DNA of 64,000 nucleotides, taken from IMG/VR virus record IMGVR_UViG_3300031851_000004, positions 1-64,000 of that record. One strand, written 5' to 3'. Under the pieces are notes generated by a model. That model had not been told where the DNA came from and searched no databases. It saw only the letters and a list, made by a program, of their open reading frames with translations. This document shows, piece after piece, positions 38,564 through 58,143 of this stretch. The translations under genes were made by a program, and so were the position numbers. The first letter of the stretch is position 1. Every line of letters starts with the position of its first letter. The stretch comes from a virus.

Positions 38564-39620
38564 TTTATTCTTATCAGCTAGTAAAATAAAAACAGCACAG
38601 GGCTGCTCTTGGAAGTATTGGGCCAATTATGTATTAAAGTTGCCTCAAACTGGGAACGAAGGATCAAGCAGGGGGTGGATTTGCCATTTGATTTTTGAGC
38701 TATTAGGAGAGAAGAAGCACAAAAAACATTATAATGCAATAATAAAATCTGGAAGCATTAATTCGTCTAAAGCTGTTTATAGATTAATCAAGTACCATGC
38801 TAAAAAATTATTGGTTGCTGATGATGAAAACATGGAGTTGATGGATATGATGATACTGAAAGGTCTTTTGTATGATTTTTTTGGTGCAAAGAATAAAAAA
38901 CCGACAAAAGGAATTTCAGAAGAATCTTTTGAGCTTAAAATATCGGAAGGGGGAAAGTCTTATAAGACTAGGGGTTTCATAGATAAGCTTTTTCTTTATG
39001 ATAGAGGCAAGAAGGCTGTAATTAGGGATTTTAAAACCAGTAAGCAATTATTTAAAGGAAAAGAAATAACTGATAACTTGCAAAACTTAATGTATTGCTT
39101 GGCGGTAAGAAAACTTTATCCAAAAGTAAAAGAAATAGAGGTGGAGTTTTTATTTTTAAAATTCAATTTAGAGGAAGACTTGCTAGGAGTCCCAGGTCCT
39201 GGGGTTGTAAAAATGGAAAGAATTTCTGAGCAAGAATTAGAGGGTTTTGAATATCAACTTTCAACAATACAAAATTACTTAGAAAATTTTGACGAAAATG
39301 ATGCAATGGGAGATTATGCAGCTAACCAAGAATACCCTTCCGATAAAACATTCGGAGGGCCTTTGATGTGCGGCAGAGAGGGGTTCAAGAAATCAAAAGG
39401 AGAATATGTGCTTACTGCAGATGGAAGCAAGATTCCTAGTTATATATGCGAACACAGGTTGCCTTTTAAATATTATGCAGTTTTGGACTCGGAAAACGAA
39501 ATATTAAAAACATACAAAACCAAAAGCGATATAAAACTTAAAGAAGGTCAATCTATTGAAGAGAGGGATTACGAAGGCTGCCCCCATTTTAACAAAAGCA
39601 AACAAAGTTTTTTGGTGTAA
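38556..39620 (+). CDS. RecB/Cas4-like PD-(D/E)XK nuclease
   Basis: The 354-residue protein starts LFLSASKIKTAQGCSWKYW and has the RecB-nuclease set: a catalytic His in WICHLIFE (H44), GFIDKLF (D143), and VIRDFKTSK (D158, K160). Cysteines at 17, 272, 298 and 342 resemble the one-plus-three pattern of the 4Fe-4S cluster in Cas4 and AddB, though the spacing of the last three is wide. It would trim or resect DNA ends in recombination or host-DNA breakdown. It follows the primase gene. Confidence 0.8.
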   Translation: MSDLFLSASKIKTAQGCSWKYWANYVLKLPQTGNEGSSRGWICHLIFELLGEKKHKKHYNAIIKSGSINSSKAVYRLIKYHAKKLLVADDENMELMDMMILKGLLYDFFGAKNKKPTKGISEESFELKISEGGKSYKTRGFIDKLFLYDRGKKAVIRDFKTSKQLFKGKEITDNLQNLMYCLAVRKLYPKVKEIEVEFLFLKFNLEEDLLGVPGPGVVKMERISEQELEGFEYQLSTIQNYLENFDENDAMGDYAANQEYPSDKTFGGPLMCGREGFKKSKGEYVLTADGSKIPSYICEHRLPFKYYAVLDSENEILKTYKTKSDIKLKEGQSIEERDYEGCPHFNKSKQSFLV

Positions 39621-39628
39621 TTTAATTC

Positions 39629-39736
39629 ATGGCGACTTTAAAAGATAAGGATAGCAATAATTTAATTTTTGTAAAAGGACATTTGCTTTTAAAAAAGAAA
39701 AGTAATAAAATAAAATTTAAAACAGTAAAGGTTTAA
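39629..39736 (+). CDS. Small basic protein, 35 aa
   Basis: The ATG at 39629 begins a 35-residue Lys-rich peptide (MATLKDKDSNNLIFVKGHLL) ending one nt before the next gene. It fills the gap between nuclease and structural gene. Position and orientation are its main support; function unknown. Confidence 0.4.
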   Translation: MATLKDKDSNNLIFVKGHLLLKKKSNKIKFKTVKV

Positions 39737-39737
39737 T

Positions 39738-41600
39738 ATGGGAGCTGGAATTAGACGGAATTTTGGAAGCAGGCAAGTTGGCAAAATAGGAAATACTACA
39801 CCTAAAGTATTTTTCTCCAATCCTGCGGGTGAAAATTCGTTTGCTTCAGAGACTTACACAAATAAGTATGGTCAAAATACATTGCCCGAAAGTTTAAGAA
39901 GGCACGGGTATCCTGTTATAAAGAACGAATTAGCTCCCAAGCCTTTTTATGAAAAACAGGAAGTTAGATATCCAGCTAAAGACTTCCATGATCTGGGGTT
40001 TTTTAACGGATTTCCGTTTTTATTATCTAAAGAAATGGATCATTTGCATTGCCCCATGGATGAAGTTCAAATTGGTAGCGATTTTTCCTTTCTCCCAAGC
40101 GGTATTTCACAAAGAAACGCAACAAATGTTGTTGTTGATGTGTCTGACAATAATTCAAAGGTCTTGGGTGGTGGGTTTGACCTAGCTCCAGCAATTAATA
40201 CTTTCACCCCAGAAACACACCCTAGGGTTGTTGCTAGTAATCATTATTGGAATCTTGCTTGTATAGAAACTGATTGGGCTATACATACAACAAATGCTCC
40301 AGCGACCTATGAGACAGGTTATTGTTATAATCCAGATGGCACATCAAGTAGCGGCATTCAGCTAGTGACCCAAGATTTTGAAGTTGTTGAGAGCTACAAC
40401 GAAGAGAGTTTCCCCCCTCATATGAGGCAATATCTTGACCCAACTGGATCACGTCAAACTCAAAGCATTGATGAAGACGGTTTAATAGTTGGTTCTGGCC
40501 AGTCTTTTTCTTCTTGTTTTTTTCTTGGAGATAACACGGGTAATTATGCTAATGTTTTCTTCCCGTTAACAATACAGCCAGAAAACACAGGAGCTTTTGT
40601 TATTACTTTAGACGAGGGTGTGGCTGAGTATTTTGACGGTCACTCAGATTATTCATCAAAAAAAGCTTTTAATTGTAACATGATGTTTGATTTCAACATT
40701 CAAAGTAGAGACGAAGAAGGTTTTGAAAGAAACGCTATTGAATATCACTCATTCCCTACAAAAGCCTATATAATACCAGCAGCAGGATGGGACTTTGAAG
40801 TTATTTGTTCGAAAGTAAAAGGGATTTATTATCAATATGATTTTAATCCAGCAAAAAGATATGTTGGTGACCAAGCTAGTTATCGTAATTATAGACCAAA
40901 ATCAGATGGGGATTTAAAATTAATACACCCAAGAACTACGACTAGAGATCGTGGGCACAATGACATCATTTATAATGGAACAAGTTACACACACATGCCT
41001 TTTGAGCCTGCTCCTTCTTGGGCTTCAAATGCATCTGATTTTATTTATGGAAATTATTTTAAATTAGAAAAAGATAAAACTTATTTAGATCCCAAGCAGG
41101 GTGAAGATGGAGATGATTCTATATATAGACAATCATTTACAGTATCAGGCTCTTACTCTACAGAAGGTAGTTACAATCAAACAAAACCTTTTGATGTTGT
41201 AACGGCAGAAGGAGCTACTAGAGAAAGGGATACTATTGTTATAGACGATAATGTAATAGTATCTCATTACGATAAAGAAAAAGAAATTCCAGTGATGCCT
41301 ACTGTCTTTAAAATTGTTCCAGCGACTCATTTTACTAATACTCCCTATAAAGGCACTACTCCAAATTCTTATCCCAAAGGAGTTAATCCAAGGAAGTTAA
41401 AAGATAAGATGGGTAGACTGATAGAGGAGGAGGGGATAACATCGAGCAGAACTCTTAATGTTAAAATAGGAGATTTGGTAGTTCAAAAAGTTAGTAAAAA
41501 CCCACAAGTAGGATGTGGTATAAGGAAGGCGGTTCCAGTGTCTGATAGTTTTCCAGGTTTCCAATCGACATCGCTTCCTTTTAAACGTCTAATCCGTTAA
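39738..41600 (+). CDS. Large hypothetical protein, probable virion component
   Basis: The 620-residue protein lacks membrane segments and recognisable catalytic motifs. It is beta-rich with many Asn, Thr, Tyr and Pro and contains segments typical of structural proteins: FGSRQVGKIGNTTPKVFFSNPAGENS, TGNYANVFFPLTIQPENTGAF, and a C-terminal LPFKRLIR. It begins MGAGIRRNFG, a basic N-terminus that could bind a partner or nucleic acid. It is followed by other non-enzymatic proteins. A virion role is inferred, not shown. Confidence 0.55.
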   Translation: MGAGIRRNFGSRQVGKIGNTTPKVFFSNPAGENSFASETYTNKYGQNTLPESLRRHGYPVIKNELAPKPFYEKQEVRYPAKDFHDLGFFNGFPFLLSKEMDHLHCPMDEVQIGSDFSFLPSGISQRNATNVVVDVSDNNSKVLGGGFDLAPAINTFTPETHPRVVASNHYWNLACIETDWAIHTTNAPATYETGYCYNPDGTSSSGIQLVTQDFEVVESYNEESFPPHMRQYLDPTGSRQTQSIDEDGLIVGSGQSFSSCFFLGDNTGNYANVFFPLTIQPENTGAFVITLDEGVAEYFDGHSDYSSKKAFNCNMMFDFNIQSRDEEGFERNAIEYHSFPTKAYIIPAAGWDFEVICSKVKGIYYQYDFNPAKRYVGDQASYRNYRPKSDGDLKLIHPRTTTRDRGHNDIIYNGTSYTHMPFEPAPSWASNASDFIYGNYFKLEKDKTYLDPKQGEDGDDSIYRQSFTVSGSYSTEGSYNQTKPFDVVTAEGATRERDTIVIDDNVIVSHYDKEKEIPVMPTVFKIVPATHFTNTPYKGTTPNSYPKGVNPRKLKDKMGRLIEEEGITSSRTLNVKIGDLVVQKVSKNPQVGCGIRKAVPVSDSFPGFQSTSLPFKRLIR

Positions 41601-44077: not shown

Positions 44078-44821
44078 ATGTTACCTTTATTTAAATCTGA
44101 TTTTTCTATAGGGAAAAGTATACTTCGCTTGGATTTAAAATCAATTTCCGAAAAACCAGATTCCAGCATTTTCAATATTTTATCCGAAAACAGTTTATCA
44201 AAACTAGTATTGGTTGAAGACTCCATGATCGGATTTATGGAAGCTTTTAGTAACTGCAAAGAGTTAGGTATTGATTTAATATATGGCATCAAAATAACCG
44301 TGGCAGAAAATTTAGATCCTAAAACATCTCATAAAATTATAATTTTTGCTAAAAACGAATTCGGATGTAAGTCTTTAAGTAAAATTTATACTTATTCTCA
44401 GGTTGATGGTGGAGGTTTTATAGATTATAAAAATTTAAAAAAACTTTGGAGTGATAACCTTTTTTTAGCTATACCGTTTTATGATTCTTTTATATTTAAT
44501 AACATTATGTATTTCAATGAATGTATTCCTGAGTTTTCTTTTGTTGAGCCAACCTTCTTTATAGAGTCGAACAATCTTCCTTTTGATGATTTAATAAAGA
44601 CTCATGTTCTCAATTATTGTGAAGTTAATAAATTTAAAACAAACGATGTTAAAAGTATTTATTATAATAAAAGATCAGATTTTTCCGCCTATCAGACTTA
44701 TAAATGTTTGTGCAACAGAGGTCCATCCACAAGATCGCTTAGCTTGGAAACCCCTAATTTGAACCACTGCTCTAGTGATGAGTTTTGCTTTGAAAGTTAT
44801 TTAGATCATGAAAGCTCTTAA
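44078..44821 (+). CDS. Separate PHP-like domain of DNA polymerase III alpha, degenerate
   Basis: The 247-residue protein lines up with the PHP domain of bacterial PolIII alpha: KLVLVEDSMIGFMEAFSNCKELGIDLIYGIKITV corresponds to the family's T-D-H-x-x-x-x-G-x-x-x-F-x-x-x-C-x-x-x-G-I-x-P-I-x-G-x-E region, and LPLFKSDFSIGKS to its N-terminal H-x-H strand. The metal-binding His residues are replaced (K/S and E-D), so it is probably catalytically inactive and may serve as a structural platform. The polymerase core lies downstream as a separate gene. It overlaps the next gene by 14 nt. Confidence 0.65.
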   Translation: MLPLFKSDFSIGKSILRLDLKSISEKPDSSIFNILSENSLSKLVLVEDSMIGFMEAFSNCKELGIDLIYGIKITVAENLDPKTSHKIIIFAKNEFGCKSLSKIYTYSQVDGGGFIDYKNLKKLWSDNLFLAIPFYDSFIFNNIMYFNECIPEFSFVEPTFFIESNNLPFDDLIKTHVLNYCEVNKFKTNDVKSIYYNKRSDFSAYQTYKCLCNRGPSTRSLSLETPNLNHCSSDEFCFESYLDHESS

Positions 44822-45776
44822 ATACTCAGATATATGCTTAATACCTAATTACAGTGAGGTTCATAGTAGAGCTGACTGCGATACTTCCATAGATTTATTT
44901 GGTAAAAAATATTTACTACCAATTATCCCTGCAAATATGAAATCGGTAATAGATATGAACATTTCTAAGTGGATGAGTTCTCATGGTTATTTTTATATTA
45001 TGCATAGATTTGATAGCAACTTGTCGGACGATGTAGCCTTAGCAAATTCTGAAGGCTGGGATACAATATCTTTTAGTGTTGGTGTAAAACTCAAAGATAA
45101 GCTTGAAATAACCAAAATCTCAAAGTGTTCTAATTTAAGAGTTGACTTTATCACTATAGATATAGCTCATGGTTATTGTCAAAGAATGAAAGGGATGATT
45201 AATCACATAAAAAAACATTTACCTAAGACAAGAATTATTGCTGGTAATGTGGCTAGCTCATGTGCGGTTAAAGAGTTGGCTAATTGGGGGGCAGACATAG
45301 TTAAAGTCGGAATAGGTCAGGGCTCTCCATGTACTACTAAAGATAAAACTGGATTTACTATGCCTATGTTTACATGCGTTCAAGAATGCTCTAATGTTAT
45401 ATCAGATAATAGAACATTTGTTCCAATAATTGCTGATGGAGGAATAAAATGCAACGGAGATATAGCAAAGTCTCTAGTTGCTGGAGCTAGGATGGCTATG
45501 GCTGGAGGTTTATTTGCCGCTTGTACAGATAGCCCAGCAGTTACAAGTACTATTAATGATGTCCCTCACAAAGCATACTTTGGTTCTGCGAGTGCAGAAA
45601 ACAAAGGTCACAGTAATAATATAGAAGGAAGATTAACAAACATTACTTGCAATAGCATGACTATAGGCGAAAAGTTTGGCGAAATAACTCAAGACTTACA
45701 AAGTTCCATAAGTTATGCTGGTGGAAGCTCTTTGAAATCATTAAAAGAAGGGGTTAAATACAGAGAAATATTATGA
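44808..45776 (+). CDS. guaC: GMP reductase-like IMPDH/GMPR enzyme
   Basis: The 322-residue TIM-barrel protein has no CBS domains. IIPANMKSVIDMNISKW, FITIDIAHGYCQRMK and ADIVKVGIGQGSPCTTKDKTGF (catalytic C175) are followed by FVPIIADGGIKCNGDIAKSLVAGARMAMAGGLFA. The K-T-G after the C-T-T loop, with E-C downstream, fits GMP reductase better than IMP dehydrogenase. GMP reductase converts GMP to IMP with NADPH, shifting guanine toward adenine nucleotides. It interrupts the polymerase genes, between the PHP and exonuclease parts. Confidence 0.8.
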   Translation: MKALKYSDICLIPNYSEVHSRADCDTSIDLFGKKYLLPIIPANMKSVIDMNISKWMSSHGYFYIMHRFDSNLSDDVALANSEGWDTISFSVGVKLKDKLEITKISKCSNLRVDFITIDIAHGYCQRMKGMINHIKKHLPKTRIIAGNVASSCAVKELANWGADIVKVGIGQGSPCTTKDKTGFTMPMFTCVQECSNVISDNRTFVPIIADGGIKCNGDIAKSLVAGARMAMAGGLFAACTDSPAVTSTINDVPHKAYFGSASAENKGHSNNIEGRLTNITCNSMTIGEKFGEITQDLQSSISYAGGSSLKSLKEGVKYREIL

Positions 45777-49129: not shown

Positions 49130-51541
49130 ATGAATAAATTCAACTTAACCCCTAGGGTTCAAAAAATAATCAACCTGTCCAGAGAAACTTCTCTGAATTT
49201 AAACTCAACAAATATTTGTTTAAACCATCTCCTTCATTCTATTTTGGATACGGATCAATCAACTATACTTAACTTTTTTCAAGATTTAAATATACCACTA
49301 GAAGATTTTAAAATTTTTGTATACAACGAAATTGATAATGATTTCGAAGACACCGCTGCTGCAGATAAAAAACCTTCTGTTTTTTGTTCTGACTTTAAGG
49401 AGGTTTTTACTTCAGCTAAGGATTTCTCTGAAGAGTTAGATCACAACTATATAGGGGTTGAACATTTATTTTATGTCCTACTTACCTTTGATGCTTCTCC
49501 TCTACCTGGCTTCTTAAAAACTTTTGATGTTGACCTAAAGAAAGCGATTAAAAAGTTGAGGAATTTTTTCTCCACTGGGGAGTGGAAACAGAACAGGATT
49601 CCTAAAAACTTCGAATCCACCCCTCAAACAAAAGACCCATCCAGTTCAACAAATTTAGAACTTTATGCTAAAAATTATAATATATTAGCACAACAAGGTG
49701 CTTTTGATAAAGTAATAAGTAAGGAACAAGAGATAGAAAAAATATCTGAAATATTATGCAGAAGAAATAAAAATAATCCCATATTAGTAGGACCTCCAGG
49801 TACTGGAAAAACTTCTCTTGTAGAGGGGCTTGCTCAATCAATAGTAAATGGAAGTTGTACTAATTTTTTGGGAAATAAAACCATTTACGAAATTGATCTT
49901 GCTGGAATAATAGCTGGGACAAAATATCGTGGTCAATTTGAAGAAAGAATAAAAGGTATTATCCAAGAGGTCGAATCAAACCAGAATATTATTTTATTTA
50001 TAGATGAAATACATACAATAATAGGTGCTGGTGCTGCTGAAGGAAGTATGGATGCTGCAAATATACTTAAACCAGCTTTAGCTAGAAGCAGAATAAAGTG
50101 CATTGGAGCTACCACCCCTAAAGAATACAAAAAATTTACTACAAAAGACTCTGCCTTAGAAAGAAGGTTTGAAAGAATAGAGATAAACCAGCCATCACAG
50201 ACTCAAACATACAAAATTATTAATGGAATCATCGAGCAATATGAAAAATTCCATCATGTTTCTTATAGAAAAAATTCTATAAAATTAGCTGTTGATATGT
50301 CGGTCAGATATATACCAGATAGACAGCTCCCAGATAAAGCTATAGATATAATAGATCAAGCGGGAGCAAAAGTTAAAATGAAAAACTTCACAAAACCTCA
50401 GTCGGCAAAAGATCTAGAGGAACAAATAGAGTTGTTGATGCTGGAGGAGGATAATGCAGAAAGTACTGATAATAAATTTGCAATGAAGCAGGATAAGTTG
50501 ATAGAGAAATATAAATCTGTTTTAGATAAATGGGCTAGTAAATACGAAAAAACAAGATTCTTTGTTACTAAAGAGGATATCTTTGATGTGATCTCTTCTA
50601 GAACTGGAATCCCCGTAGGAAACTTAACCCAAAAAGACTCTGAAAAACTCATAAATTTAAGCAAATCTTTAAACAAAACAGTCTTCTCTCAGGAAGAAGC
50701 TGTGCTAACAATTTCAGATTGCTTAATTAGATCAAAAAGTGGTCTTTCTGATGAGAATAAACCAATGGGTTCCTTTTTGTTTTTGGGTCGAACAGGTGTA
50801 GGTAAAACATATTTAGCAAAAACAATCGCTAAAGAATATTTTGGGAGCGAAGATAATTTAATACATATAGATATGTCAGAATACTCTGAAAAGATAAACA
50901 TATCAAGGCTCATAGGGTCAGCTCCTGGATACGTTGGTTACGATGATGGAGGGCAACTTACAGACAAGATAAAATTAAAACCTTACTCAGTTTTATTATT
51001 TGATGAGGTTGAAAAAGCTCACCCTGAAGTTTTAAATATATTGCTTCAGTTGCTTGAAGAAGGTAGGTTGACTGACAACTTCGGAAGGCTATCTGATTTT
51101 AGTAATTGTATAGTTATAATGACTGGAAATATTGGAGCCCTCAACTTATCAAAAGGGGGGTCCTTCGGCTTCAACCAGACCTCAAGCTCAGATGGAATAA
51201 GGTTAAAAATTAGAGAAGAGGCTGAAAAAACATTAACACCAGAGCTTATAAACCGACTAGATGAAATTGTAGTTTTTAATGATTTCGACAAAGATCAATT
51301 AAAGAATGTTTTAAAATTAAAAGTAAAAGCCTTGCAATTAAAACTAAAACAGAGTAAGATAGAATTGATTGTATCGGAAGAGGCTATGGATTACATGACA
51401 GACCTTGCTCTTAAAGAAGAATTAGGAGCCAGACCAGTAAAAAGAATATTGCAAAAAAAAGTTGAAAACATAGCATCTAGATGGATTATAATCAATAAAA
51501 CTGGCACATTAAAAATAAACAAAGAAGATATAAATGACTGA
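49130..51541 (+). CDS. ClpC/ClpA-like double AAA+ unfoldase
   Basis: The 803-residue protein has a Clp N-domain (residues 1-145), D1 with Walker A GPPGTGKT (221-228) and FIDEIHTIIGAG, a short middle region of about 50 residues (about 427-475), and D2 with Walker A GRTGVGKT (553-560) and LLFDEVEKAHPE. Pore loops KYRGQFEER and GYVGYDD are present. A short middle region excludes ClpB. FGF at 679-681 sits where ClpC has the V-G-F ClpP-contact loop, so it may unfold proteins into host ClpP. It starts one nt after dnaE. Confidence 0.9.
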   Translation: MNKFNLTPRVQKIINLSRETSLNLNSTNICLNHLLHSILDTDQSTILNFFQDLNIPLEDFKIFVYNEIDNDFEDTAAADKKPSVFCSDFKEVFTSAKDFSEELDHNYIGVEHLFYVLLTFDASPLPGFLKTFDVDLKKAIKKLRNFFSTGEWKQNRIPKNFESTPQTKDPSSSTNLELYAKNYNILAQQGAFDKVISKEQEIEKISEILCRRNKNNPILVGPPGTGKTSLVEGLAQSIVNGSCTNFLGNKTIYEIDLAGIIAGTKYRGQFEERIKGIIQEVESNQNIILFIDEIHTIIGAGAAEGSMDAANILKPALARSRIKCIGATTPKEYKKFTTKDSALERRFERIEINQPSQTQTYKIINGIIEQYEKFHHVSYRKNSIKLAVDMSVRYIPDRQLPDKAIDIIDQAGAKVKMKNFTKPQSAKDLEEQIELLMLEEDNAESTDNKFAMKQDKLIEKYKSVLDKWASKYEKTRFFVTKEDIFDVISSRTGIPVGNLTQKDSEKLINLSKSLNKTVFSQEEAVLTISDCLIRSKSGLSDENKPMGSFLFLGRTGVGKTYLAKTIAKEYFGSEDNLIHIDMSEYSEKINISRLIGSAPGYVGYDDGGQLTDKIKLKPYSVLLFDEVEKAHPEVLNILLQLLEEGRLTDNFGRLSDFSNCIVIMTGNIGALNLSKGGSFGFNQTSSSDGIRLKIREEAEKTLTPELINRLDEIVVFNDFDKDQLKNVLKLKVKALQLKLKQSKIELIVSEEAMDYMTDLALKEELGARPVKRILQKKVENIASRWIIINKTGTLKINKEDIND

Positions 51542-56573: not shown

Positions 56574-57137
56574 ATGTCTAATAATAAGTGTGGAAAAGGT
56601 TTTAATTTGTTAAAAAAAACCAAGACCTACTTAGTAGGTCACATGCAATACAAAAGCGGTAGGGATTGGAGGTCTGAAGTAACTAAAAGCCTTAACCCTA
56701 TAGGAGTTACTTGCTTTGATCCGTATAAAAAACCATTTGTAAAAGACGTTGAAGAAGATGAAGATTCGAGGCGAGAGATGGAAATATGGATGGATACAAA
56801 ACAATACGACAGGGTTTCTGATAAAATGAAAACCGTGAGATCTTATGATCTTAACTTAGTTGACAGATCTGATTTTATAATAGCTCATTTGGTTCCAGAA
56901 GTGGCTTCGTGGGGTTCCGCAGAAGAAATAGTGACTGCGGTTAAGATGAAAAAACCTATTTTCATAAGCATGGAGGGTGGAAAATCAAAAACACCTCTTT
57001 GGATGCTTGGAATGCTACCGCATAAGTATATCTATAACAGCATAGATGAAATTGTAAAAATGCTTTTCGCTATAAATGAAGGTAGTAAGCCTATTGATTC
57101 TGACCGTTGGAGGTTATTGAGGGCAGAGTATAGATAG
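56574..57137 (+). CDS. Nucleoside deoxyribosyltransferase-like protein
   Basis: The 187-residue protein has TYLVGHMQYKSGRDWRSEVTKSL and NLVDRSDFIIAHLVPEVASWGSAEEIVTAVKMKKPIF (motifs DRSDFIIAHL, WGSAEEI), matching the nucleoside 2-deoxyribosyltransferase-like fold, where a G-S-x-E-E motif supplies the catalytic Glu. Such enzymes move deoxyribose between bases or act as hydrolases. With RNR, dUTPase and GMP reductase it suggests active remodelling of the nucleotide pool. It converges on the leftward gene with a 24-nt overlap of coding regions. Confidence 0.7.
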   Translation: MSNNKCGKGFNLLKKTKTYLVGHMQYKSGRDWRSEVTKSLNPIGVTCFDPYKKPFVKDVEEDEDSRREMEIWMDTKQYDRVSDKMKTVRSYDLNLVDRSDFIIAHLVPEVASWGSAEEIVTAVKMKKPIFISMEGGKSKTPLWMLGMLPHKYIYNSIDEIVKMLFAINEGSKPIDSDRWRLLRAEYR

Positions 57138-57640: not shown

Positions 57641-57698
57641 TTACACTTCTTATCGTCTTTTAAAAAACTTATTGCTTTTTTTTAAAACTACTGTAATC

Positions 57699-57704
57699 TA
57701 TATT
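57699..57704 (+). promoter_or_regulatory. Candidate -10 for tmRNA
   Basis: TATATT (57699-57704), about 18 nt before the tmRNA 5' end, which host RNase P would trim. The -35 is poor: TTGCTT at 57672-57677 with a 21-nt spacer. Confidence 0.3.
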
Positions 57705-57722
57705 AGATCTTTGAAAATTTAT

Positions 57723-58143
57723 GGGGGTGTTCTGGATTCGACTAAAGTTAGATTCTTGCACCGCAAGTCGGAGACGCACTTGGCTCCGCAAAAAAGTGCA
57801 ACTTGTACATGGCAAGACTAAAAATCGTGTTAGAGCTTTAAGTTTCAAGAGCCGCATCGCTTCCAAGCGTGTTGGTTTTAGAAGCCGCAAGCTCGCCTTA
57901 GCAGCTTAATCTGCTAACCTCTTACCTTTTGACGCAGATATTAAGGATAAGGGGTCATCAATCTGCAAAAACAGAAAAAGTTTACCTGTTAATAAACTGT
58001 AGTCCGCTGAGTATTCGGAGGCAAATAATTGTAATAGGAAGTTGGATGTTAATATCACAACTTTAAAAAAAATTAACTAAACTTGTAGACGTGTCTGATT
58101 GAAGGCTATTAGGACGCGGGTTCAAATCCCGCCACCTCCACCA
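57723..58143 (+). ncRNA. ssrA: One-piece tmRNA (transfer-messenger RNA)
   Basis: The 421-nt RNA begins GGGGGTG (57723-57729), which pairs with CACCTCC at 58133-58139 to give a seven-base-pair acceptor stem, and ends in encoded ACCA (58140-58143). TTCTGGATTCGAC near the 5' end and GGACGCGGGTTCAAATCCCGCC near the 3' end are the standard tRNA-like elements. Pseudoknot 1 is 57769-57799 (CGGAG/CTCCG with GCACTT/AAGTGC). Eleven nt later, as in E. coli, comes the probable resume codon GGC (57811), opening a 32-residue tag ending KLALAA before the TAA at 57907-57909; TTAGCAG/CTGCTAA closes helix 5. It should rescue stalled ribosomes and tag proteins for degradation. Confidence 0.95.
57811..57909 (+). 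other. tmRNA tag reading frame, 32 codons
   Basis: From GGC at 57811 to TAA at 57907-57909. The tag starts GKTKNRVR, contains 11 Lys/Arg in 32 residues, and ends in the degron-like KLALAA. The start is chosen from the 11-nt distance to pseudoknot 1 and the A four bases upstream of the codon; another start cannot be excluded. Confidence 0.6.

What the first reader, a model, noticed from the sequence alone, without database searches (positions are those of the whole stretch)
57723..58143. Phage-encoded tmRNA with a long, very basic tag
Acceptor stem, encoded CCA, T-arm, pseudoknot 1 at the right distance from the resume codon, and helix 5 are all present, so the gene looks intact. The inferred tag is 32 residues with 11 Lys/Arg, whereas typical tmRNA tags are about 8-20 residues and neutral to acidic apart from the C-terminus. 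It keeps the LALAA-type end. A long basic tag could send products to nucleic acid, change proteolysis, or favour a phage protease. tmRNAs have been reported in few phages.
Basis: partly seen in the sequence, partly recalled or inferred. Interest (0 to 1): 0.85.

Follow-up and report, generated by a model that had tools for sequence, protein, structure and literature searches.

The report
Phage tmRNA with long swappable tags
A large uncultured (probably marine) phage carries its own intact copy of the bacterial ribosome-rescue RNA, whose peptide tag is three times the usual length and strongly positively charged; related phages carry the same RNA with tags ranging from strongly negative to strongly positive, so the tag looks like a fast-changing, selected module.

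Summary
Window 57723-58143 (+) holds an intact one-piece tmRNA (ARAGORN; Rfam RF00023 133.3 bits, full length) whose resume codon (57811) opens the tag GKTKNRVRALSFKSRIASKRVGFRSRKLALAA: 32 aa, 11 Lys/Arg, no Asp/Glu. It is not a lone oddity. With the window's own, I compared 47 tmRNAs sharing this backbone. Their tags are 19-40 aa (41 in one further locus), with net charge from -11 (GEGYDSIEELLEAAREEYDNLVQFEQAEELEMVA) through -1..+7 (GNKSRIKAYSPQSESLALAA) to +10..+12. In-frame purifying selection (pN/pS 0.19 for the 31-aa basic class, about 1 or more in the other frames) and covarying PK1 helices show that RNA and tag are maintained. Tag classes change on the RNA tree, disagree with the phages' Clp tree, and one acidic tag sits on the other acceptor type, so tags appear to be exchanged. 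32 of 48 related phage records also encode a ClpC-type unfoldase, sometimes directly upstream of the tmRNA; none of 52 encodes SmpB or ClpP. Best reading: functional phage trans-translation using host SmpB, with a phage-customised degron, possibly read by the phage's own Clp. Basic charge as a nucleic-acid-targeting signal is not supported. New variant of a known kind.

The parts
57723..58143 (+). tmRNA (ssrA) gene, one-piece, 421 nt
   Evidence: ARAGORN; Rfam RF00023 133.3 bits, model 1-374; sequence
57811..57909 (+). tag reading frame: resume codon GGC 57811-57813, tag GKTKNRVRALSFKSRIASKRVGFRSRKLALAA, stop UAA 57907-57909
   Evidence: conserved frame in relatives, pN/pS 0.19
57723..57729 (+). 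acceptor stem 5' strand GGGGGUG (pairs with 58133-58139; G57725-U58137 = G3-U alanine identity pair)
   Evidence: sequence; identity rule is established knowledge
58116..58143 (+). T-arm GCGGG-UUCAAAU-CCCGC (58116-58132), acceptor 3' strand 58133-58139, discriminator A58140, encoded CCA 58141-58143
   Evidence: sequence
57769..57799 (+). pseudoknot 1: CGGAG 57769-57773 / CUCCG 57784-57788 and GCACUU 57776-57781 / AAGUGC 57794-57799; 11 nt before the resume codon
   Evidence: covariation in 23 sequences: 98.7% of cells paired, 6 of 10 pairs with double changes
57918..57966 (+). pseudoknot 2 region: CCUCUUACCUU / AAGGAUAAGGGG and GCAGAU / AUCUGC
   Evidence: sequence; pairing assigned by eye; pattern used to find relatives
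58040..58077 (+). pseudoknot 4: AGUUG 58040-58044 / CAACU 58058-58062 and GUUAAU 58048-58053 / AUUAAC 58072-58077
   Evidence: sequence; pairing assigned by eye
57672..57699 (+). promoter-like element TTGCTT-16 nt-TAATCT with TG before the -10, 23 nt upstream of the tmRNA
   Evidence: several relatives have TTGACA/T-17-TATACT/TAATAT at the same place; not reported by the stricter scan
57706..57721 (+). boxA-like leader GATCTTTGAAAATTTA ending 1 nt before the tmRNA
   Evidence: relatives match the gamma-proteobacterial boxA consensus GYTCTTTAANA (PMC5725501)
58147..58216 (+). inverted repeat AAAGCAACCAA ... TTGGTTGCTTTTTTG just after the CCA end, terminator-like
   Evidence: sequence; the consensus scan allows only loops of 3-8 nt and so could not report it
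49130..51541 (+). ClpC-type AAA+ unfoldase (803 aa) with Clp_N domain and a ClpP-docking-like loop GGSFGFN
   Evidence: Pfam; nearest solved structures B. subtilis / S. aureus ClpC, E ~1e-190, loop aligned with YVGFN
56574..57137 (+). nucleoside 2-deoxyribosyltransferase-like gene upstream; its homologue also lies next to the tmRNA in L070 and in the same contig in L069

Best explanation
It is a working phage tmRNA. The RNA is charged with alanine by the host AlaRS, bound by host SmpB and EF-Tu, and enters ribosomes stalled on truncated mRNAs during infection. It adds Ala plus a 32-aa tag and lets the ribosome terminate. The tag ends in LALAA, so tagged fragments go to Clp proteolysis. The long variable part before LALAA is a phage-specific module, kept by purifying selection within a class but replaced between classes. 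It most likely tunes who degrades the product (host ClpXP/ClpAP, or the phage's own ClpC-type unfoldase docked on host ClpP) rather than acting by its positive charge as such. Shown here: intact RNA, tag frame under selection, tag-class exchange, presence and frequent genomic linkage of the Clp unfoldase, no SmpB or ClpP in the phage records. Inferred: charging, SmpB use, expression, tagging, and which protease reads the tag.
For: RF00023 full-length match and tRNA-Ala-type acceptor. PK1 covariation 98.7% paired, score 0.546 against 0.04-0.15 when slid. Tag pN/pS 0.19 (31-aa basic class, 8 distinct sequences) and 0.32 (34-aa acidic class, 4 distinct), against 0.96-2.64 in the other two frames. 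Tags end LALAA or a similar small hydrophobic end (EMVA, PMAA) in all classes. Tag classes mixed inside one supported clade of the backbone tree and discordant with the Clp tree. Acidic tag on the GGGCGTG/CACGTCC acceptor type in L042. Clp unfoldase in 32 of 48 related records, same strand in 22 of 24 cases, tmRNA 105-227 nt downstream of the Clp match in four and directly beside it in L070. Clp closest to ClpC with an aligned ClpP loop. No SmpB and no ClpP in the phage records.
Against: No expression, charging or tagging data. The host is unknown, so host SmpB and ClpP compatibility is assumed. Most records are fragments, so absence of SmpB/ClpP is not proof. Clp and tmRNA are not always together: 16 of 48 records lack a Clp match, and three sizeable Clp-bearing relatives without a detected tmRNA were found. 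Only 24 pairs were measured for linkage and they are phylogenetically dependent.
Confidence: 0.72

Rival explanations
1. The tmRNA rescues ribosomes, but the tag body is selected for something other than proteolysis: a basic or acidic helix that carries fragments to nucleic acid, membrane or virions, or neutralises them.
For: Strong charge in both long classes; AlphaFold predicts the window tag as one helix, pLDDT 84.6, though single-sequence peptides are easily predicted helical; purifying selection on the tag body.
Against: The same backbone carries tags of opposite charge and of 19-21 aa with lower charge, so no one charge-based target fits all; the LALAA-like degron end is kept.
Confidence: 0.12
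2. The phage tmRNA interferes with host trans-translation: it competes for SmpB/AlaRS and replaces host tags, to spare phage products or block host quality control.
For: A tmRNA-like-domain fragment (phage DS6A) is reported to inhibit tmRNA (PMC4131195, PMC11915505); no phage SmpB; own promoter-like and boxA-like leader suggest independent expression.
Against: The tag frame, stop codon and degron end are under selection, which a pure decoy would not need.
Confidence: 0.1
3. An ordinary host tmRNA captured by the phage; the long tag is inherited from the host and has no phage-specific meaning.
For: Phages do acquire tmRNAs (PMC9004378); the host is unknown, so the donor has not been excluded.
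Against: A scan of one genome for each of 84,980 species for the backbone pattern found tmRNAs only on two phage contigs inside MAGs; usable chromosomal tags of the Halobacteriovorax family are 9-16 aa; modal tag length is 10 aa (PMC11915505).
Confidence: 0.05
4. The resume codon is elsewhere and the real tag is short.
For: ARAGORN itself picks other frames in several relatives.
Against: Position 11 nt after PK1, UA at -5/-4, the Rfam alignment, and selection only in this frame. The ARAGORN calls in relatives ignore the conserved TACAT|GGC.
Confidence: 0.01

Closest known systems
tmRNA / ssrA, standard one-piece form (Rfam RF00023)
   Same: Whole architecture: tRNA-Ala-like domain, PK1, tag frame with resume codon, further pseudoknots, LALAA-type tag end
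   Different: Tag of 32 aa (+11), against a modal 10 aa; relatives reach 41 aa and -11; boxA-like leader; phage-borne
Phage tmRNAs of mycobacteriophages (Bxz1 group, Wildcat) and Bacillus phage G (PMC4131195)
   Same: Phage-encoded ssrA
   Different: Different phage groups. No match to the window tmRNA beyond a 47-nt 3' stretch in one Alcaligenes phage, and no match to the basic tag, in 50,697 phage records
Two-piece tmRNA of marine phage Melnitz and pelagimyophages (PMC9004378)
   Same: Aquatic-phage tmRNA; suggested roles in ribosome upkeep or host protein turnover
   Different: Melnitz is permuted, of SAR11-like origin and has a glutamine riboswitch; this one is one-piece with a boxA-like leader; sequences were not compared directly
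ClpC unfoldase (B. subtilis, S. aureus)
   Same: Nearest solved relative of the phage Clp over residues 6-785, with Clp_N domain and loop aligned to YVGFN
   Different: Phage protein, 803 aa, no phage ClpP found; activity unknown

Membership tests
tmRNA (RF00023) | Covariance-model match over the whole molecule above the gathering score | tested here: met
   133.3 bits vs 47, model 1-374
tmRNA (RF00023) | tRNA-Ala-like domain: G3-U pair, T-arm, discriminator A, CCA | tested here: met
   Sequence
tmRNA (RF00023) | PK1 about 11 nt upstream of the resume codon, maintained by covariation | tested here: met
tmRNA (RF00023) | Tag frame with hydrophobic Ala-rich end and stop codon, conserved as protein | tested here: met
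   Tag ends LALAA then UAA; pN/pS 0.19 in the 31-aa class
tmRNA (RF00023) | Works with SmpB; is charged with Ala; tags peptides in vivo | not testable with these tools
   No SmpB in the 99-kb record or in the 52 records searched; a host SmpB must be assumed
Phage-borne gene | Lies in a phage genome, not a bacterial contig | tested here: met
   IMG/VR virus record; UvsX-like recombinase, DnaB, primase, RNR, Pol III and a weak virion-structural hit; terminase in 10 of 12 related records, none in this 99-kb record, which is probably partial
ClpC-type ClpP-partner unfoldase | Two AAA+ modules, Clp_N, no long ClpB M-domain, [ILV]GF-like ClpP loop | tested here: met
   loop SFGF here and LGF/IGF/VGF in relatives
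ClpC-type ClpP-partner unfoldase | Docks on ClpP and degrades tagged substrates | not testable with these tools
   No ClpP in the phage records; NCBIfam ClpA/ClpB curated cut-offs not reached
boxA antitermination element | Match to GYTCTTTAANA in the transcript leader | tested here: inconclusive
   Window has 9 of 11; 11 of 47 are perfect by eye; consensus from PMC5725501 is for gamma-proteobacteria and the host is unknown

The most novel reading that the evidence does not exclude
A family of uncultured large phages runs its own trans-translation branch: a tmRNA expressed from its own boxA-led transcript writes long, exchangeable tags of +12 to -11 charge that are read by a co-encoded, often adjacent ClpC-type unfoldase using host ClpP. 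Infection would then re-route stalled products away from the host's ssrA proteolysis, and the tag would diversify in an arms race.
Probability: 0.3. Interest if true: 0.85.

Novelty: new variant of a known kind. Interest (0 to 1): 0.62.

Why it matters
tmRNA tags in bacteria are short and conservative. Here one RNA backbone carries tags from -11 to +12, up to 41 aa, conserved within a class and apparently exchanged between phages. That is a natural experiment on what a tmRNA tag may be, and on whether phages customise protein turnover. It also makes testable an open question, why some phages carry a tmRNA, by linking it to a phage-borne Clp unfoldase.

Tried and rejected
Short ordinary tag from another resume codon: rejected. 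Host-derived long tag: not found in genomes; the two genome hits with a tmRNA are phage contigs in MAGs, and the other two pattern hits hold no tmRNA. Phage SmpB or ClpP: none found. Cultured relatives: tag and tmRNA searches of the phage collection gave no homologue. Similarity of the window's 5' tmRNA part in 241 genomes of the Halobacteriovorax phylum: only the phage contig. Origin of the basic tag by internal duplication (NRVRALGFK / NRIAAKRFGFK, 33 nt apart): suggestive in L019 and L069 but not significant in most members, so left open.

Full report
What was claimed and whether it is there. Rfam's tmRNA model matches it from position 1 to 374 at 133.3 bits. In the sequence, the acceptor stem pairs 57723-57729 with 58133-58139 and has the G3-U pair that marks tRNA-Ala (identity rule: established knowledge). 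The CCA is encoded, and the T-arm and GGAUUCGAC segment are normal. PK1 ends 11 nt before the resume codon GGC at 57811, and UA stands at -5/-4 as in E. coli (E. coli comparison from general knowledge). The tag has 5 Lys, 6 Arg and no acidic residue.

Is it phage? The record is an IMG/VR virus contig of 99,270 bases. The window holds a DnaB helicase, ribonucleotide reductase, Pol III alpha, a UvsX-like recombinase, primase and a weak virion-structural hit. Terminase was found in 10 of 12 related records but not in this one, so this contig is probably a partial genome of a larger phage. No relative is close in the cultured-phage collection. The host is unknown. Marine origin is my inference, not a tool result.

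Relatives. A pattern for the 5' end and one for the PK2 region gave 10 and 51 viral contigs; phage relatives found through the Clp protein led to two of the same tmRNAs independently. With the window's own and two phage contigs in MAGs, 47 tmRNAs with the same backbone were extracted, and some more by eye. Nearly all open the tag after TACAT (a few TAAAT, TATTT or TACTC). The tags fall into three kinds: basic 31-33 aa, +10 to +12 (10 of the 47, including the window); acidic 34-40 aa, -9 to -11 (6, and a 41-aa one in L141); and 19-21 aa, -1 to +7 (31). ARAGORN alone gets several of these wrong, so automated tables would hide part of this diversity.

Both RNA and tag are maintained. On 23 distinct PK1 regions, 98.7% of cells pair, 6 of 10 pairs show changes on both sides, and sliding the partner destroys the signal. 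For the 31-aa basic tags, pN/pS is 0.19 in frame and 0.96 and 2.35 in the other two frames; for the 34-aa acidic tags 0.32 against 1.32 and 2.64. The pairs are not independent and the acidic set has only four distinct sequences, so the ratios are rough, but the direction is clear. The 20-21-aa sets are more relaxed (0.48, 0.72).

The tag behaves as a module. On a tree of the backbone without the tag, basic, acidic and some 20-aa tags share one supported clade (95/98), and the three classes together need three changes. On the Clp protein tree, the four basic rows need four changes and the four acidic rows need four: the window phage's nearest Clp relatives with a known tag carry acidic or 20-aa tags. 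L042 has an acidic tag on an RNA with the GGGCGTG/CACGTCC acceptor of the other clade. Exchange of tags, or of tmRNA parts, between phages is the simplest reading. Codon patterns for the basic tag body hit only tmRNA loci in 2.9 million viral contigs.

A proteolysis partner. The window encodes an 803-aa AAA+ protein at 49130-51541. Its nearest solved relatives are ClpC; it has a Clp_N domain and a loop GGSFGFN aligned with ClpC's YVGFN, the ClpP-docking loop (loop role from general knowledge). Relatives mostly have LGF, IGF or VGF there. Of 48 related records, 32 encode it. In 22 of 24 measured records tmRNA and Clp are on the same strand, and in G068, G069, G086 and G095 the tmRNA begins 105-227 nt after the Clp match; in the phage contig L070 it lies directly beside Clp. 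None of 52 records has SmpB or ClpP, so both must come from the host if the system works. The linkage is suggestive, not proof: distances elsewhere are 1.4-19 kb (73 kb in one record), and the records are related.

Expression signals. In 46 of 47 tmRNAs a GWTCTTTRAMAWTTTA-like element ends within a few nt of the tmRNA start, although the DNA further upstream is unrelated. It resembles rRNA boxA; 11 of 47 match the published gamma-proteobacterial consensus GYTCTTTAANA (PMC5725501) perfectly by eye, the window at 9 of 11. The Halobacteriovorax-family tmRNAs examined lack it at this place. Promoter-like hexamers stand 22-27 nt upstream in many members. Antitermination or RNA-folding help by Nus factors is an inference.

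How it most likely works. Host AlaRS, EF-Tu and SmpB load the phage tmRNA onto ribosomes stalled on broken mRNA during infection; the ribosome switches to the phage tag and terminates; the tagged fragment, ending in LALAA, goes to Clp proteolysis. The long body may make the product specific for the phage Clp, or let it avoid a host adaptor. The RNA, frame, selection and linkage are shown; every biochemical step is inferred. Charge as a nucleic-acid address is unlikely as a general role because the opposite charge occurs on the same backbone.

Known or new. tmRNA in phages is known: 402 of 18,146 genomes (PMC9004378), 79 phage sequences of 97,179 (PMC11915505, which gives a modal tag of 10 aa). 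I found no report of long tags of this kind in the open-access library, but subscription papers and the tag tables behind those databases were not searched. I file it as a new variant of a known kind.

Noticed in passing
window 57706-57721; same place in 46 of 47 tmRNAs of the family: boxA-like leader directly before the tmRNA 5' end, conserved while the DNA further upstream is not.
   Followed up: partly
L017 10411-10987; L015 1-352: A different viral tmRNA whose T-loop appears to be interrupted by a group I intron (Rfam Intron_gpI 10748-10987 in L017). The intron form is known in bacteria (PMC11915505).
   Followed up: no
L069 (Halobacteriovorax MAG) and L070 (Proteobacteria MAG): Two MAG contigs carrying this tmRNA family are phage contigs by gene content; the MAG names are not host evidence.
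   Followed up: yes
G007 C14 895606-895971 and C25 4159-4521 (L074, L076): The Halobacteriovorax MAG holds two further tmRNAs with ordinary short tags (ANNDFAPAMAA, ANNNDNFEYALAA), one of them on a 101-kb contig.
   Followed up: no
window 5761-26174: A run of some 20 ORFs mostly on one strand; three at its end match phage nucleotide-sugar epimerase; most of the run was not annotated.
   Followed up: no
window 44808-45776 and 56574-57137: IMP dehydrogenase/GMP reductase-like and nucleoside deoxyribosyltransferase-like genes; together with RNR they suggest reworked nucleotide metabolism.
   Followed up: no
L011, L013, L018, L020, L021, L069, L070: ARAGORN misplaces the resume codon or misses the gene in several of these tmRNAs, so databases built on it will under-report them.
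   Followed up: partly
G004 38822-41209: The Clp homologue has one in-frame TAA over the matched region in one relative; sequencing error, decay or recoding not examined.
   Followed up: no
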